DNA from: Quadrisphaera granulorum
GTDB taxonomy: Bacteria; Actinomycetota; Actinomycetes; Actinomycetales; Quadrisphaeraceae
Direction: 5' to 3'
Assembly (NCBI RefSeq): GCF_003149145.1
Contig: NZ_QGDQ01000032.1
Location: 1-53,034, forward strand
DNA length: 53,034 bases
Shown: positions 5,569-34,149 of the stretch, piece after piece
How positions within the stretch are numbered: position 1 is the stretch's first letter
Layout: each line of letters opens with the position of its first letter
The notes under the pieces: model-generated
What the model was told of the DNA's origin: nothing
Seen by the model: only the letters and a program-made list of their open reading frames with translations
The model's database searches: none
Translations under genes and position numbers: made by a program

Positions 5569-6321
5569 TCATCGACGCAGTTCGGGGTCAGGTGATCGGA
5601 CCAGGATCCTGTCGCACTCCTCGCACTGCACCACGTCGTCGGGCGCTGCGCCGGTGACGACCCCCCGGAAGGTGCCGGTCAGCGGCAGACGGCACCCGCC
5701 GCACGTCTCACCGACCAGCGATGCAGCGCCCAGGCCGTCGCGGCGTTCACGGATCTTCTCGTAGAGGGCCACCAGGCCCTTGTCGAGCTGACCGATGGCG
5801 CCGGAGCGCTGCGCGCCGATCTGCTCGTGCTCCTGCCGGGCAGCGGTCAACGCGGTGTCGCGAGCGGCGAGAAGCTTAGCGCGCTCACCGGCGAGCCCCG
5901 CCGCGCGCTGCTCCAGCTCGGCGACGGCCTCGGCCGCACTCTCCTGGCGCTCCATGACCTCCAGCTGCGCGTCTTCCAGGGTGCGCAGGCGCCGTGTGAG
6001 GGCCTCGGCCTCGGCGAGCAGCTGCTGGAGCTCCTTGGCGGGCGTGCCGCCGGCAGCTAGGCGCGCGGACGTGCGCTCGGCGCGGGCCCGCACCTGCTCG
6101 ACCTCGATCTCCGCGCGGGTGGCTTCCCGCTCGACGTCGGAGGCCACCGTGCGGGCGGCCACCAGCTCGTCGCGCAGGGTGCGCTCTGTGGTCTCCAGCG
6201 CGGCCAACGCCGCGTGCTCGGGCAGCGTCCGCGCCCGGTGCACGATCTGCGCCAGCTTGGTGTCGAGGGCCTGCACGTCGAGCAGACGCCGCTGGTCGCG
6301 GGCGGGAGCGGTGAGCGTCAT
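5569..6321 (-). CDS. Coiled-coil protein with C-terminal C4 zinc ribbon
   Basis: 250 aa. Residues about 10-170 are a long heptad-rich coiled coil (many E, R, A, L), followed by a zinc ribbon with two Cys pairs, CGGC about 205 and CEEC about 231 (zf-RING_7 / C4-type family). Homologues are found next to Nif3-like genes across Actinobacteria; a nucleic-acid or protein-binding role has been proposed but the function is not established. ATG 6321 (MTLTAPARDQRRLLDVQALD) is the family-like start. It lies 7 bases behind the stop of the Nif3-like gene, so the two are one operon. A much longer frame upstream overlaps nif3 and is a shadow. Confidence 0.85.
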   Translation of the reverse strand: MTLTAPARDQRRLLDVQALDTKLAQIVHRARTLPEHAALAALETTERTLRDELVAARTVASDVEREATRAEIEVEQVRARAERTSARLAAGGTPAKELQQLLAEAEALTRRLRTLEDAQLEVMERQESAAEAVAELEQRAAGLAGERAKLLAARDTALTAARQEHEQIGAQRSGAIGQLDKGLVALYEKIRERRDGLGAASLVGETCGGCRLPLTGTFRGVVTGAAPDDVVQCEECDRILVRSPDPELRR

Positions 6322-14744: not shown

Positions 14745-14791
14745 CCCGACATGGTCACCGACGGGACGGGATTGGGGGGGCGGTGTCGTGG

Positions 14792-14864
14792 TGGGCCCGG
14801 CCGGGTTCGAACCGACGACAGCCGCGGTGTAAACGCGGTGCTCTACCAGCTGAGCTACAGGCCC
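14792..14864 (-). tRNA. tRNA-Val (anticodon TAC)
   Basis: 73 bases on the minus strand. The acceptor stem GGGCCTG pairs with CGGGCCC; there is a D-arm TAGCTCAGCTGGTAGAGC, an anticodon stem CCGCG/CGCGG around loop TTTACAC (anticodon TAC), a T-arm GTCGGTTCGAACCCGGC and discriminator A. CCA is not encoded. It decodes GUA and probably other GUN codons. Confidence 0.95.
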
Positions 14865-27763: not shown

Positions 27764-27836
27764 ACCCGTGTCCTGCCGCAGGGCACGGGTGGCGCCTGGT
27801 AATGTCGTCATCCGACGCCGCCGCTGGCGCGTCCTT

Positions 27837-27909
27837 TCCCGCATAGCTCAATTGGCAGAGCAGCCGGCTGTTAACCGGCAGGTTCTTGGTTCGAGTCCAA
27901 GTGCGGGAG
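27837..27909 (+). tRNA. tRNA-Asn (anticodon GTT)
   Basis: 73 bases. The acceptor stem TCCCGCA pairs with TGCGGGA, discriminator G. There is a D-arm TAGCTCAATTGGCAGAGC, an anticodon stem GCCGG/CCGGC around loop CTGTTAA (anticodon GTT), and a T-arm CTTGGTTCGAGTCCAAG. CCA is not encoded. Confidence 0.95.
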
Positions 27910-28141
27910 CCCTTCTCCTCGACTCCCCCTCCGACGGCGGCGGGGACTTCTCAGAGCCCAACGGTCGCGCCGAGATCCTCTGTCTCGACCCAGGGGCCGC
28001 TCCCCCAACACCATCAGAGCGCTTATCGCTCGTGACTCTGTGTGACATGCACGGCTCCAGCCGGGCGGACCGCCAGGCCACCACGCCGTGATCATGCAAG
28101 TGCGCCGCGTGATCACACCTACAGTTCGATTCGATCAAGGG

Positions 28142-29824: not shown

Positions 29825-29898
29825 GCCGCGGTAGCTCAGCCGGTCAGAGCAGGGGACTCATAATCCCTCGGTCGTGGGTTCGAGCCCCACCCGCGGCA
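29825..29898 (+). tRNA. tRNA-Met, elongator (anticodon CAT)
   Basis: 74 bases. The acceptor stem GCCGCGG pairs perfectly with CCGCGGC; the D-arm is TAGCTCAGCCGGTCAGAGC, the anticodon loop CTCATAA (CAT), the T-arm GTGGGTTCGAGCCCCAC, and the discriminator A. The perfect first acceptor pair excludes an initiator tRNA. A CAT anticodon could also be tRNA-Ile2 after lysidine modification; the body is closer to elongator Met. Confidence 0.88.
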
Positions 29899-30144
29899 CC
29901 GACATCAGTGCACGTCACAGGCCACAGAGGAAATCCCTATGCCCGCACCCTGATCGCTCCAGTCCGCATCTGGTCCGCACTTCCTGCGAGGACGAAGTTC
30001 CCAGGCACACCCGGAGTGACGACCGCGGGGTGAGGACTCCGGTGATCGGGAAGGCGTAGAACGGGCGCGGGCTGCCAGGGTGGTTGTCCATGCCACTCGG
30101 CACGCACCTGTGTGCAAGCCCCGATCCGGCGTACCGTGCCAGGC

Positions 30145-30702
30145 GTGTTGGTCCCGTCGCCTCCGTTGAGGGCGGGGAGCTTTCTGCGATGGCCCATGCC
30201 GTACGCGGAGTTCCTGGCCCTCGGAGAGACGAAGCACCACGAGTACTACGACGACGTGGTGACGGCGACTTCCCCGTCGCGGCGTCACGTCACCGTGCAG
30301 AGCCGCCTCACCCGCTGTCTCCAGGACGCCTGCCCTGACGGTGACGACGTGTTGAGCGAGTGGGGCTGGCAGGCCGCGCCGCAGATGGTGTTCGAGCCGG
30401 ACGTCATGGTCTTCCATGCTGACGCTCCGGGCCCTGACCTGCTGCGCGAAGCTCCGCTGCTGGTGGTCGAGGTGCTCTCGCCGTCGACGCGCTCCGAGGA
30501 CGTCGGCCGGAAGCGGGAGCTGTACGGCCTGGCCGGAGCCGCCTGGTACTGGCTCGTGGATCCTCAGAGCGACACCCTCACGGTGCTTCGCAACGACGGC
30601 GGCCACTTCGTGGATGCTGCACGCCACCCGGCCGCCATCACCGTGACCGTCGATGAGCCGTTCGCCGTCGAGATCGACTGCGGCGCGCTCTTCGCTCGCT
30701 GA
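30145..30702 (+). CDS. Uma2-family putative endonuclease (PD-(D/E)XK fold)
   Basis: 185 aa. MPYAEFLALGETKHHEYYDDVVTATSPSRRHVTVQSRL corresponds to the family's MTxEEFLALPE...YELxDG...SPxxxH start. FEPDVMVF supplies the catalytic Asp, and PLLVVEVLSPSTRSEDVGRKRELYGLAGAAWYWLVDPQ holds the E-x-K core and the Y-x-x-x-G-V-x-x-YW-V-DP signature. Proteins of this family are numerous and mostly uncharacterised; nuclease activity is inferred from fold. The chosen GTG has TACCGT 13 to 8 bases upstream; a GTG at 30112 is also open. Confidence 0.8.
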   Translation: MLVPSPPLRAGSFLRWPMPYAEFLALGETKHHEYYDDVVTATSPSRRHVTVQSRLTRCLQDACPDGDDVLSEWGWQAAPQMVFEPDVMVFHADAPGPDLLREAPLLVVEVLSPSTRSEDVGRKRELYGLAGAAWYWLVDPQSDTLTVLRNDGGHFVDAARHPAAITVTVDEPFAVEIDCGALFAR

Positions 30703-30766: not shown

Positions 30767-32050
30767 GTGACCTTGCCGCCGGGCGTGCCGACCTCGCCAG
30801 CGCTGCGCCCGAGGCGCCAGCAGGACACCGCGACCAGAACGACGACGACGCCCGCCTCAGCGCCAGCTGCACCCCCGATGCGCAGGGGGTCGACGCGCAG
30901 TTCGACGCGCAAGGGGTCGACGCGGACCGCGGCCGTCGACGTCGTCCGCGGACTACTGCTCGCCATCAGCGTGGTCACGAGCAGCCTCATCGCTCCGCCG
31001 GACTGGTTCGAGCACGCGCCGTGGGCGAGTGTGCACCCCCTCGACGTCGTCTTCCCCGCCTTCGTGGTGCTCACCGGCGCTGGTCTGGGCTTCGCGCACC
31101 GTCGCGGCGTCCGCGTGAGCCGGTTGGTGCGTCGCGTCGTCGTCCTCATCGCAGCGGGGATGGCCTACAACGCGGCGATGGCGTGGGCGCGCGACGGCAC
31201 CGTCGACCTCGACACGCTGCGGTGGACGGGCGTGCTCCAGCTCTACGCGGCGCTGGTGCTGGTCATCGCCGTCCTGCACCTCGTGGTGCGAGGCTGGATC
31301 GCGTGGACCGGCGTCGCGCTGGCGCTCGCGGGCGCTCACACGGCGCTGCTCGCGCGCTGGGCGGTCGGCTGCCCCGGCGGCGAGGTCACCCCGCAGTGCA
31401 ACCCGTCGCTGAGCATCGACAGCGCCGTGCTCCCGACGGCGCACCTCTACGAGCAGTTCAGCCTCGGGCACGACCCGGAGGGACTGGTCGCGCTGCTGGG
31501 CGCCTGCGCGACCGCCGCCGCGGGGACGGCGGCCGCCCACGCGATCACCGCCTCGCGCGCCAGCCACGCGGCGGCGCTGGGGCGACTGCTGACGGTCGCC
31601 GTCGTCGTCGCTGCCGGAGCTGCCGCCGCCGCTCCCCTGGTCCCGGCCATGAAGCGGCTCTGGACGGCGCCGTTCGGCCTGGGTGTCGCTGCAGCGGTGG
31701 TGCTCGTCGTCGCCGTGGTGCACGCCGTGGTCGACGCGCCCTGGGTTGACGCGCCGGGGATCGAACGGGGCGCGGGGGCCGGCGCGCTCGTCCGCTCGGC
31801 ACGGCGGCCCTTCGTCGCGCTGGGGCGCAACAGCCTGCTCGTGTACTTCGGTAGCCACGTGGTCGCCGAGCTGCTGCTCCTGCGGCCGCTGCGGCCCGAC
31901 CCCACCGCGGCGCCCAGCTACGCGGAGTCGCTCGGGCAGGGCCTCGGATGGTTGGTGAGCGACCAGGTGGGCTTCAGCGCGGCCGTGCTCGCGTGCTGGT
32001 GGGTGCTGGCGACGGCGCTGCACCGGCGCGGCTGGTACCTGCGCGCCTGA
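30767..32050 (+). CDS. HGSNAT-like membrane acyltransferase
   Basis: 427 aa. An N-terminal Thr/Arg/Ser-rich tail of about 55 residues precedes about ten membrane helices. AVDVVRGLLLAISVVTSS, then HAPWASVHPLDVVFPAFVVLTGAGLGFAHRRG (holding the His used in acetyl transfer by HGSNAT), RRVVVLIAAGMAYNA and LRWTGVLQLYAALVL match the DUF1624/DUF5009 or heparan-alpha-glucosaminide N-acetyltransferase type group. Bacterial relatives probably acetylate envelope sugars across the membrane; the acceptor here is unknown. LGRNSLLVYFGSHVVAELL is the conserved late helix. No sugar operon surrounds it. Confidence 0.75.
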   Translation: MTLPPGVPTSPALRPRRQQDTATRTTTTPASAPAAPPMRRGSTRSSTRKGSTRTAAVDVVRGLLLAISVVTSSLIAPPDWFEHAPWASVHPLDVVFPAFVVLTGAGLGFAHRRGVRVSRLVRRVVVLIAAGMAYNAAMAWARDGTVDLDTLRWTGVLQLYAALVLVIAVLHLVVRGWIAWTGVALALAGAHTALLARWAVGCPGGEVTPQCNPSLSIDSAVLPTAHLYEQFSLGHDPEGLVALLGACATAAAGTAAAHAITASRASHAAALGRLLTVAVVVAAGAAAAAPLVPAMKRLWTAPFGLGVAAAVVLVVAVVHAVVDAPWVDAPGIERGAGAGALVRSARRPFVALGRNSLLVYFGSHVVAELLLLRPLRPDPTAAPSYAESLGQGLGWLVSDQVGFSAAVLACWWVLATALHRRGWYLRA

Positions 32051-32118
32051 CCGACGGGTTGACCGGCAGGTTGACCGGCGGGGCGGCGCCGGGCGGACCA
32101 CGGCTAGGTTGGGCCGCC

Positions 32119-32700
32119 GTGAGCCAGAGCCTGTGGGCCCTCAGCGTGGCCGACCTGCTGGAGCGGACCGCGTCATCCGCTCCGACACCCGGCGGCGGTT
32201 CCGTCGCCGCGGTCACCGGGGCGCTGGGAGTGGGGTTGGTGCAGATGGCCGTCGCCGTGACCGGCGACGGTGCCCTGGACCACCACACGGAGCAGCTGAC
32301 AGCCGTGCGCGAGCGCGTTGCCGCCGCGGCGGACGGTGACGTCGCCGACTTCGAGCACCTGATGGCCGCTTACCGTCTGCCCCGACAGGACGACGACGAC
32401 GCGCGCCGTCGTCGTGAGGCCATCGAGGCGGCCAGCGTCCGCGCCACCGAAGGGCCGCTCGGCCTTGTCGAGGCGCTGCTCGACGCCGTCGACCAGTCGC
32501 ACGTCGTGGAACCGTTGGTAAAGCGCGGCGTGGTGAGCGACGTTCTGGCCGGACGAGACCTGGCGCTGGGTGCCGCTCGCGCGGGCTTGCGCACGGCCGA
32601 CATCAACATCGATGCGCTCGAACGCCTCTCCTCGGAGCAGGTGCCCGGGCTCCGCGAGCGCCGTGACGCCCTGGTGGAGCGGCTGGAGGAGGCAGCATGA
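32119..32700 (+). CDS. Methenyltetrahydrofolate cyclohydrolase-type protein (FTCD_C family)
   Basis: 193 aa, all-helical. LLERTASSAPTPGGGSVAAVTGALGVGLVQMAVAVT (about 9-45) is the glycine-rich signature of the formiminotransferase-cyclodeaminase C-terminal family, to which FchA methenyl-THF cyclohydrolase of methylotrophs belongs. AGRDLALGAARAGLRTADINID is the conserved later block. The likely reaction is hydrolysis of 5,10-methenyl-THF to 10-formyl-THF. The stop overlaps the ATG of an Mtd1-like methylene-THF dehydrogenase (ATGA) that seems to lack this very activity, so the two should work in sequence. A cyclodeaminase role is less likely without formiminotransferase. TAGGTT lies 14 to 9 bases before the GTG. 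Confidence 0.85.
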   Translation: MSQSLWALSVADLLERTASSAPTPGGGSVAAVTGALGVGLVQMAVAVTGDGALDHHTEQLTAVRERVAAAADGDVADFEHLMAAYRLPRQDDDDARRRREAIEAASVRATEGPLGLVEALLDAVDQSHVVEPLVKRGVVSDVLAGRDLALGAARAGLRTADINIDALERLSSEQVPGLRERRDALVERLEEAA

Positions 32701-33614
32701 GCGCGACCGTGCTCGACCCGTCGCCCGTGGCGGCGGCGTTCCGTGAGGAGGTGCGCGGTCACGTGCGGCACCTGGTGGAGCAGGGCCGCTCGCTGCGCGT
32801 GGTGGGGTTGATCAGCCAGGAGAAGGGGCCGGCGGCTACGTACGCGCGGTACGCCCAGCGGGGGTTCGAGGACGTCGGCATCACCTTCGAGCTGCGCCAC
32901 ACCGAGGCGGCGCAGGCGGAGGCCGCCGTCGCGGCGGCCAACACCGATCCCGACGTCGACGGGGTGTTCCTCTACTACCCGCTGACGGACCGCGCCGGTG
33001 ACCGGTGGCTGCGTGAGCTGGTCGACCCGCGCAAGGACATCGAGGGCATGCACTCGTTCTGGGGTCGCCTGCTCTACGAGAACGAGCGCTTCGTGGACCC
33101 GGAGCACCGGCACCGGGCGATCCTGCCGTGCACACCGTTGGCGATCCTCAAGCTGCTGGAGGCGGCGGGGCTGCACAGCGACCGCGAGGCCGCCCCGCTG
33201 GAGGGGGTCACCGCGTGCGTCATCAACCGCAGTGACGTGGTGGGCCGCCCCCTCGCGGCGATGCTCGCCAACGACGGCGCCCGCGTGCACTCCCTCGACC
33301 TGACCGGTCCGCTGACGTTCGAGCCGGCGATCGGCCGTCACGCCCACGACGTCCGCGACTCCGACATCGACAGGCACGCGGCGTTGGCTGCCGCCGACGT
33401 CGTCATCTCCGCGGTGCCCTCGCGCGACTTCGAGCTCGTCCGGGGCGAGGAGATCCGCGAGGGGGCGATCTGCGTGGACGTCGCGGAGTTCACCAACTTC
33501 GACAGCTCCGTCCACGAGCGGGCGAGCGTCTTCGTGCCGCGTGTCGGGCCGTTGACCATCGCGATGGCGGCGCGCAACCTCGTGCGCCTGGCGTCGGCCC
33601 GCCGACCCGGCTGA
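32697..33614 (+). CDS. Mtd1-like methylenetetrahydrofolate dehydrogenase
   Basis: 305 aa member of the FolD/MTHFD superfamily, but of the type of yeast Mtd1, which is NAD-dependent and monofunctional. Diagnostic blocks are LYENERFVDPEHRHRAILPCTPLAILKLLE (about 124-153), VINRSDVVGRPLAAMLANDGARVHSLD (about 176-202), and the end EGAICVDVAEFTNF...VPRVGPLTIAMAARNLVRL. In FolD a Lys four residues after a Tyr (K56) drives the cyclohydrolase step; here the pair is Tyr49 and Ala53 in GPAATYARYAQRGF, so cyclohydrolase activity should be absent. The preceding coupled gene encodes a separate cyclohydrolase-type protein. Likely reaction: methylene-THF to methenyl-THF with NAD+. Genome annotation will probably call it FolD. 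Confidence 0.87.
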   Translation: MSATVLDPSPVAAAFREEVRGHVRHLVEQGRSLRVVGLISQEKGPAATYARYAQRGFEDVGITFELRHTEAAQAEAAVAAANTDPDVDGVFLYYPLTDRAGDRWLRELVDPRKDIEGMHSFWGRLLYENERFVDPEHRHRAILPCTPLAILKLLEAAGLHSDREAAPLEGVTACVINRSDVVGRPLAAMLANDGARVHSLDLTGPLTFEPAIGRHAHDVRDSDIDRHAALAAADVVISAVPSRDFELVRGEEIREGAICVDVAEFTNFDSSVHERASVFVPRVGPLTIAMAARNLVRLASARRPG

Positions 33615-33714
33615 CCGGCTGCCGCATCGCGCGTCGTCGGCTCACAGGGCCCTTCGGCGTGCGACCCTGGTGGAACGCGCTCCGGCGCGCCGACCGCCGA
33701 GAAGGGCGGGCACG

Positions 33715-34149
33715 ATGGCTCTCTCCGAGCACAGCCCCTACGACGACCGCTCCACCCTGGAGCACGTGCGTCACCAGCACGACGAACGCGTCGAGCGCAC
33801 CGCGCTCGAGGCGACGCAGCGACGCCGCGCGGCGGTCGAGGTGTGGCGGCGCGAGCGTGACGCGGAAGACGGTCGCCGCCAAGCTGACCAGCAGGAGCAG
33901 CTGGCGGCCCGGCGGATGCGCGACGAGCAGGTGCGGCAGCGCCACCTCGCCGAGGACGAGGAGCGCCGCGCCAAGAAGCTCCTTGACGACGCCCTGCGCC
34001 GCGAGCGGGTCACGGCTCACCTGGCCCGCCAGGACCCGGCCCGGCACGAGCACCTGGCCCGCGCCCAAGCGGACGTCGAACGGGCCACGCAGCGCTGGCA
34101 GGCCGCCGACGCCCTGCGCCGGCAGTGGCCCTCGCGCTGGCCCTGGTAG
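33715..34149 (+). CDS. Charged coiled-coil hypothetical protein
   Basis: 144 aa, made almost wholly of Arg, Glu, Gln, Ala, Asp and His; a continuous amphipathic helix or coiled coil is expected from about residue 12 to 135 (EHVRHQHDERVERTALEATQRRRAAVEVWRRERDAEDGRR...). No known family was recognised. ATG 33715 follows GAAGGGCGGG. The Trp-rich end (QRWQAADALRRQWPSRWPW) is unusual and might contact a membrane or partner. It stands 100 bases behind the dehydrogenase, probably as a separate unit. Confidence 0.6.
   Translation: MALSEHSPYDDRSTLEHVRHQHDERVERTALEATQRRRAAVEVWRRERDAEDGRRQADQQEQLAARRMRDEQVRQRHLAEDEERRAKKLLDDALRRERVTAHLARQDPARHEHLARAQADVERATQRWQAADALRRQWPSRWPW

What the first reader, a model, noticed from the sequence alone, without database searches (positions are those of the whole stretch)
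32119..33614. Split folate pair: FTCD_C cyclohydrolase coupled to an Mtd1-like dehydrogenase lacking the FolD catalytic lysine
The second protein matches yeast-type Mtd1 over long blocks (for example ILPCTPLAI and INRS-VVGRPLAA) and has Ala53 where FolD has the cyclohydrolase Lys (Y-x3-K becomes Y49-x3-A53). The preceding gene, overlapping by ATGA, belongs to the family of FchA methenyl-THF cyclohydrolase. Seen: motifs, residue, overlap. Known: yeast Mtd1 is a monofunctional NAD-dependent dehydrogenase. Inferred: the two proteins together replace bifunctional FolD, with NAD rather than NADP as cofactor, favouring formate/formyl-THF output.
Basis: partly seen in the sequence, partly recalled or inferred. 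Interest (0 to 1): 0.75.

Follow-up and report, generated by a model that had tools for sequence, protein, structure and literature searches.

The report
Two-gene stand-in for folate enzyme FolD
Two overlapping bacterial genes, one like a yeast folate dehydrogenase and one like a folate ring-opening enzyme, appear to do together the job of the two-in-one enzyme FolD, and in some related bacteria they seem to be all that is left of it.

Summary
In detail: an FTCD_C protein (32119-32700) and an Mtd1-like dehydrogenase (32697-33614) overlap by ATGA. The second is nearer yeast Mtd1 (E 2.6e-56) than any FolD of known structure (best 1.9e-17). Three FolD active-site residues are replaced: K to A/T, Q to Y, D to E in 30 of 30 relatives; 27 of 27 FolDs keep K, Q, D. 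An invariant Asp in the nucleotide-binding fold suggests NAD.

'Replaces FolD' holds in relatives, only partly here. Of 33 genomes with the dehydrogenase, 12 show no FolD; all 12 have the FTCD_C gene beside it. FTCD_C is missing only where FolD remains (8 of 21). Eight of 11 FolD-less genomes tested also lack formate-THF ligase. About half of the 12 are metagenome assemblies.

The window's genome has two FolDs with the Lys, both in catabolic clusters, but has lost the folD that follows glyA in its genus.

Best reading: a split, probably NAD-linked FolD substitute; a new variant of a known kind. Activities and cofactor are inferred, not shown.

The parts
32119..32700 (+). FTCD_C-family gene, 193 aa, likely methenyl-THF cyclohydrolase
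   Evidence: Pfam FTCD_C E 3.8e-34; nearest solved chain 7vg4, methenyl-THF cyclohydrolase, E 2.7e-15
32182..32199 (+). PTPGGG motif of the FTCD_C protein (residues 22-27)
   Evidence: PGGG in all 21 adjacent FTCD_C proteins aligned and in the parts of 7vg4, 1tt9 and 1o5h
32685..32692 (+). GGAGGAGG, ribosome-binding-like sequence before the second start, inside the first gene
   Evidence: read directly
32697..32700 (+). ATGA overlap of stop and start
   Evidence: read directly; NTGA in 18 of 18 loci of this gene order
32697..33614 (+). Mtd1-like methylene-THF dehydrogenase, 305 aa
   Evidence: nearest solved chain yeast Mtd1 1edz E 2.6e-56, best FolD 1.9e-17; A1 profile 530 bits
32841..32855 (+). 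Y49-x3-A53: the FolD Lys position is Ala
   Evidence: A 20, T 10 of 30 Mtd1-like; K in 27 of 27 FolD
32973..32981 (+). Y93-Y94-P95: the FolD Gln position is Tyr
   Evidence: Y in 30 of 30; Q in 27 of 27 FolD
33036..33044 (+). D114-I115-E116: the FolD Asp position (third) is Glu
   Evidence: E in 30 of 30; D in 27 of 27 FolD
33297..33299 (+). D201, acidic residue at the end of the second strand of the nucleotide-binding fold, fits NAD
   Evidence: D in 30 of 30 and in yeast Mtd1; FolD rows in register read H followed by S or T

Best explanation
The two genes form a translationally coupled, split substitute for bifunctional FolD. The Mtd1-like protein oxidises 5,10-methylene-THF to 5,10-methenyl-THF, probably with NAD+, and has lost the cyclohydrolase half of FolD's active site. 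The FTCD_C protein hydrolyses methenyl-THF to 10-formyl-THF, needed for purines and for initiator tRNA. Where the pair is complete FolD can be lost; where FolD stays, its cyclohydrolase can serve and the FTCD_C gene can be lost. In the window's species the glyA-linked folD of the genus is gone and the pair is complete; two FolDs from catabolic clusters remain. Shown: families, residues, overlaps, co-occurrence, gene losses. Inferred: both activities, the cofactor, the direction in the cell.
For: Nearest yeast Mtd1. K, Q, D replaced in 30 of 30 against kept in 27 of 27 FolDs, and yeast Mtd1 has the same T, Y, E type. Asp for NAD in 30 of 30. FTCD_C adjacent in 20 of 26 relatives; 4-base overlap in 18 of 18, and where the order is reversed (L026-L028) an 8-base overlap in 3 of 3. 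No third gene recurs at a fixed place across deep branches. Partner distances correlate, r 0.93, Mantel p 0.0001, 21 pairs. FolD absent in 12 of 33 genomes, FTCD_C adjacent in all 12; FTCD_C lacking in 8 of the 21 with FolD (Fisher one-sided p 0.015). 8 of 11 FolD-less genomes tested also lack formate-THF ligase. In the genus: folD lost from behind glyA only in the window's species, FTCD_C found only in the window's species.
Against: No assay. This genome has two FolDs with Lys, which could do the work alone. The Fisher test ignores kinship; the kinship-aware pair test had 5 pairs and no power (none contrary). FTCD_C is adjacent in 11 of the 21 genomes that have FolD, so the pair is often not a replacement. 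Six of the 12 FolD-less genomes are metagenome or isolate-of-metagenome type records (G008, G012, G015, G023-G025), three of them known here from contigs of 3-5 kb, and completeness was told only for G542 (99%). In G014 FolD rests on a partial match at a contig edge. The FTCD_C protein misses NCBI's FchA cut-off (90.9 of 275 bits). MtdA was not searched for. No structure model could be made.
Confidence: 0.77

Rival explanations
1. The FTCD_C protein is a formimino-THF cyclodeaminase and the pair works reductively: formimino groups become methenyl-THF, which the Mtd1-like protein reduces to methylene-THF.
For: The Pfam family includes cyclodeaminases, and weaker matches to formiminotransferase-cyclodeaminase (1tt9, E 1.2e-5) and a cyclodeaminase (1o5h, E 2.5e-5) are found.
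Against: The best solved relative is a methenyl-THF cyclohydrolase (7vg4, E 2.7e-15). The protein stands alone, without the formiminotransferase domains that the full-length protein of G018 has. Eight genomes without FolD and formate-THF ligase would then have no evident source of 10-formyl-THF. Not searched: formiminotransferase genes elsewhere in these genomes.
Confidence: 0.1
2. The pair is a catabolic module that oxidises surplus one-carbon groups for NADH, beside FolD, and is not a housekeeping replacement.
For: FolD is present in 21 of 33 genomes with the dehydrogenase, this one included. NAD would suit catabolism (general knowledge).
Against: No demethylation or other C1 gene recurs beside the pair; in this genome it is the FolDs that lie in C1-catabolic clusters. 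FolD is absent in 12 of 33.
Confidence: 0.09
3. The Mtd1-like protein is bifunctional after all, through other residues, and the FTCD_C gene is a dispensable helper.
For: The dehydrogenase stands without any FTCD_C gene in 8 of 33 genomes and is under constraint there (dN/dS 0.16-0.24 among four genomes of the genus, three of them without FTCD_C).
Against: All 8 of those keep a FolD match (G014's partial), and none of the 12 FolD-less genomes lacks FTCD_C. All three FolD residues are replaced, as in yeast Mtd1.
Confidence: 0.04

Closest known systems
Yeast Mtd1 (PDB 1edz), monofunctional NAD-dependent methylene-THF dehydrogenase
   Same: Best structural-library match by sequence (E 2.6e-56; profile E 3.7e-84), aligned over nearly the whole length; same residue types at the three FolD positions and the same Asp; one clade apart from FolD (100/100).
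   Different: Bacterial; overlaps with its own FTCD_C gene. Position 53 is Ala here, Thr in yeast. Cofactor not tested.
Methylotroph split pair MtdA + FchA (recalled; FchA structure 7vg4)
   Same: Two separate proteins for the two FolD steps; the cyclohydrolase is of the FTCD_C family.
   Different: The dehydrogenase is of the FolD/Mtd1 family, not MtdA; MtdA is recalled as NADP-linked. The FTCD_C protein is below the FchA cut-off.
Acetogen NAD-dependent dehydrogenase and separate cyclohydrolase (Clostridium formicoaceticum, Acetobacterium woodii)
   Same: Titles in the reference list of PMC7793690 report an NAD-dependent methylene-THF dehydrogenase and a cyclohydrolase purified in separate papers from C. 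formicoaceticum.
   Different: I saw titles only; no sequence of those enzymes was compared.
Bifunctional FolD
   Same: Superfamily, both Pfam domains.
   Different: K, Q and D all replaced; profile scores 457-531 bits for Mtd1-like and 57-87 for FolD, no overlap.

Membership tests
Bifunctional FolD | Active-site Lys, Gln, Asp (roles recalled) | tested here: not met
   A53, Y93, E116 in the window; 27 of 27 FolDs keep K, Q, D
Bifunctional FolD | NCBI FolD model cut-offs | tested here: not met
   best 91.3 bits against a cut-off of 477; none of the 25 listed models reached (31 matched, 25 shown)
Yeast-type Mtd1 (monofunctional dehydrogenase) | Clade with yeast Mtd1 apart from FolD | tested here: met
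   100/100 in a tree of 58 proteins, one eukaryotic Mtd1 only, long branch
Yeast-type Mtd1 (monofunctional dehydrogenase) | Lys replaced, no cyclohydrolase | tested here: inconclusive
   Replacement met; activity not testable here
Yeast-type Mtd1 (monofunctional dehydrogenase) | NAD as cofactor | not testable with these tools
   Only an invariant Asp that fits NAD
FTCD_C (Pfam PF04961) | Score over the gathering cut-off | tested here: met
   118.4 bits, cut-off 24.5
FchA equivalog (NCBI NF045657) | Curated cut-off of 275 bits | tested here: not met
   90.9 bits: a relative that may work like FchA, not filed as FchA
FTCD_C (Pfam PF04961) | Methenyl-THF cyclohydrolase activity | not testable with these tools
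   Inferred from the nearest solved relative and from FolD-less genomes
MtdA/FchA split pair | Dehydrogenase of the MtdA family | tested here: not met
   Only FolD-family domains found in Pfam

The most novel reading that the evidence does not exclude
A bacterial two-gene cassette (Mtd1-type dehydrogenase plus FTCD_C cyclohydrolase) that has repeatedly displaced FolD is the source of fungal MTD1: fungi kept the dehydrogenase and not the partner, as the window's genus-mates did. The coupled proteins may also form a complex that hands over methenyl-THF.
Probability: 0.25. Interest if true: 0.75.

Novelty: new variant of a known kind. Interest (0 to 1): 0.6.

Why it matters
The FolD family is near-universal (matches in 394 of 398 Actinomycetota genomes drawn) and FolD is studied as an antibacterial target (title and abstract of PMC3338484 in the listing). 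This pair suggests how FolD can be lost: its two activities pass to two proteins, probably with another cofactor. Calling the second protein a bifunctional FolD would be wrong. The pattern of losses makes it testable why FolD is bifunctional, and the bacterial branch gives yeast Mtd1, whose placement a 2024 survey called difficult (PMC11064299, passages), close relatives in bacteria.

Tried and rejected
Considered that the Mtd1-like gene alone replaces FolD: rejected, as all 12 FolD-less genomes have FTCD_C. Considered a larger C1 operon: no third gene recurs at a fixed place across deep branches. Considered the genomes with weak FolD-family matches in the phylum draw (G103, G120, G128, best E near 1e-20) as Mtd1-like: rejected, 0 of the 27 genomes of their class matched the Mtd1-like profile at 1e-50. 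Looked for FTCD_C remains in genus-mate loci L004, L091, L092: only chance-level pieces, best E 0.17. Promoter and terminator scan of 31900-33900: none found, about none expected. Yeast Mtd1 inside the bacterial clade (99/98) is not kept as a claim: yeast outside is not rejected, p-AU 0.479. Plasmid records gave 201 matching records, all under 60% identity, those listed annotated as FolD for the most part; not followed. Literature: no description of such a bacterial pair in the listings seen nor, in passages, in PMC1971073; one search was useless because 'fold' is an English word; one search found no paper. Rows dropped: L079 (FolD of G731, recovered piece of 114 aa) from alignment and tree. 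In one search, of 25 FolD rows, three (L003, L031, L075) were cut at the wrong motif and many carry an insertion that shifts the fixed columns; the His-Ser/Thr statement is from reading the printed rows.

Full report
What is there. On the + strand an FTCD_C-family gene (32119-32700, GTG start, 193 aa) and an Mtd1-like gene (32697-33614, 305 aa) overlap by ATGA. The first has Pfam FTCD_C at E 3.8e-34, the second both domains of the THF dehydrogenase/cyclohydrolase family.

What the second protein is. Its nearest solved relative is yeast Mtd1 (1edz, E 2.6e-56); the best FolD gives 1.9e-17. A profile of 27 relatives (A1) scores Mtd1-like proteins at 457-531 bits and FolDs at 57-87, with nothing between. 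Against 27 FolDs (25 from genomes searched here, 2 from solved structures) the 30 Mtd1-like proteins differ at three fixed positions: K to A (20) or T (10), Q to Y (30), D to E (30). Yeast has T, Y, E. That these three matter for FolD chemistry (human numbering K56, Q100, D125) is recalled, not a result here. At the end of the second strand of the nucleotide-binding domain all 30, and yeast, have Asp; the FolD rows in register read His then Ser or Thr. An acidic residue there usually goes with NAD; that is an inference.

What the first protein is. Its nearest solved relative is a methenyl-THF cyclohydrolase (7vg4, E 2.7e-15), with which it shares PTPGGG. It is well under NCBI's FchA cut-off (90.9 of 275 bits), so it is called a likely cyclohydrolase and not filed as FchA.

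The pair across genomes. One scan found 26 relatives of the dehydrogenase, mostly Actinomycetota, with single or few records named as Acidobacteriota, Myxococcota and proteobacteria that are metagenome assemblies. FTCD_C is adjacent in 20 of 26: upstream in 17, downstream in L026-L028. Upstream pairs overlap by NTGA in 18 of 18 with the window; the 3 reversed pairs overlap by 8 bases, ATGCCTGA. No other neighbour recurs at a fixed place across deep branches. Distances between the partners correlate at r 0.93 over 21 pairs (Mantel p 0.0001).

Does it replace FolD? FolD-family and FTCD_C searches of the 26 genomes and of 14 more handles give 33 different genomes with the Mtd1-like gene: the 26 and G000, G426, G505, G542, G731, G1014, G1223. 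G492 is the genome of L004 again (same places as G001) and is counted once. FolD shows no match in 12; all 12 have FTCD_C, adjacent. FolD is present in 21; FTCD_C is present in 13 of these (11 adjacent; elsewhere in G731 and in G018, where it is part of a full formiminotransferase-cyclodeaminase) and absent in 8. Fisher one-sided p is 0.015, and 0.004 for adjacency. Kinship is not corrected for; the kinship-aware pair test had 5 pairs, none contrary, and cannot reach significance. In G014 the FolD evidence is a partial match at a contig edge. Of the 12 FolD-less genomes, five are named isolates (Microlunatus endophyticus, Humibacter albus, Gryllotalpicola ginsengisoli, Microlunatus kandeliicorticis and the complete chromosome of Conexibacter sp. 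S30A1), six are metagenome-type records, and one (G542) is unnamed, 99% complete. Formate-THF ligase was sought in G000 and the 26: over the cut-off in 3 of 27 (G012, G013, G015), so 8 of the 11 FolD-less genomes in that set have neither, four of them isolates (G542 not tested). In those 8 the pair is the only route to 10-formyl-THF that I found; MtdA and formiminotransferase were not searched for.

How common. Rare and patchy: 6 of 396 genomes of the window's order, 3 of 300 in the class of Conexibacter, 5 of 299 in the family of Humibacter, 0 of 27 in another class, all at E 1e-50. FolD-family matches as such are in 394 of 398 genomes of the phylum draw.

The window's own genome. It has two FolDs with the Lys. 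One (contig C8) lies among sarcosine oxidase, serine hydroxymethyltransferase, GTP cyclohydrolase I and a molybdopterin oxidoreductase; the other (C7) between a purU-like gene (formyl transferase with ACT domain) and GTP cyclohydrolase I. In the tree they stand with a FolD of G1014, apart from the FolD of the genus. The genus FolD follows glyA in G426, G492, G505 and G531, and stands beside a different glyA in the fragmented G544. In the window's species zwf and glyA are kept (92 and 96% identical to G505) but folD is gone from behind glyA; a TldD/PmbA-family gene lies there. Of the six genomes of the genus seen, four have the Mtd1-like gene and only the window's has FTCD_C. So the species that lost the glyA-linked folD is the one with the full pair. 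One case is an anecdote, not a test, and the two catabolic FolDs could share or do the work. Mtd1-like dN/dS among the four is 0.16-0.24, so the gene is constrained with or without the partner.

Evolution. Mtd1-like proteins and yeast Mtd1 are one clade apart from FolD (100/100). Yeast falls inside the bacterial branch (99/98) but on a long branch, and yeast outside is not rejected (p-AU 0.479). PMC11064299 (passages) calls MTD1 the most likely fungal ortholog of FolD/MTHFD2 and its placement difficult.

Verdict. Observation confirmed; interpretation partly supported and sharpened. A split FolD substitute of yeast-Mtd1 type with its own FTCD_C gene is a new variant of a known kind. I found no description of it in the listings, which cover only an open-licence library.

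Noticed in passing
L111 2129-4426 (G013); also G012:C278:9928-12135 and G015:C89:114728-116930: A second FTCD_C gene lies directly beside formate-THF ligase in 3 of 3 genomes here that have the ligase: another candidate cyclohydrolase pairing.
   Followed up: partly
G066, G096, G177, G308 and G557: Genomes at least 90% complete without any FolD-family match; how they make 10-formyl-THF was not looked at.
   Followed up: no
L014 5102-5980, before the Mtd1-like gene at 6001: In Segeticoccus rhizosphaerae the gene just upstream of the Mtd1-like gene is an adenosine deaminase (Pfam E 1.7e-72) in place of FTCD_C.
   Followed up: partly
L113 1696-4114 (G731): The Mtd1-like gene lies directly beside an FGGY-family kinase gene, with FTCD_C elsewhere in the genome.
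   Followed up: partly
L109, L110 (G544): zwf-glyA runs to a contig end and folD stands beside another, 79% identical glyA on a second short contig; it may be an assembly artefact.
   Followed up: partly
window 30112-30702 and 30767-32050: A Uma2-family protein and a HGSNAT_cat-family membrane protein lie upstream of the pair; the latter ends 68 bases before the FTCD_C start.
   Followed up: no
window 14789-14864, 27836-27912, 29825-29900: tRNA-Val, tRNA-Asn and tRNA-Met genes.
   Followed up: no
PMC11064299, passage: The paper says MTD1 has only cyclohydrolase function, while titles in its own reference list call it a monofunctional NAD-dependent dehydrogenase; probably a slip.
   Followed up: no
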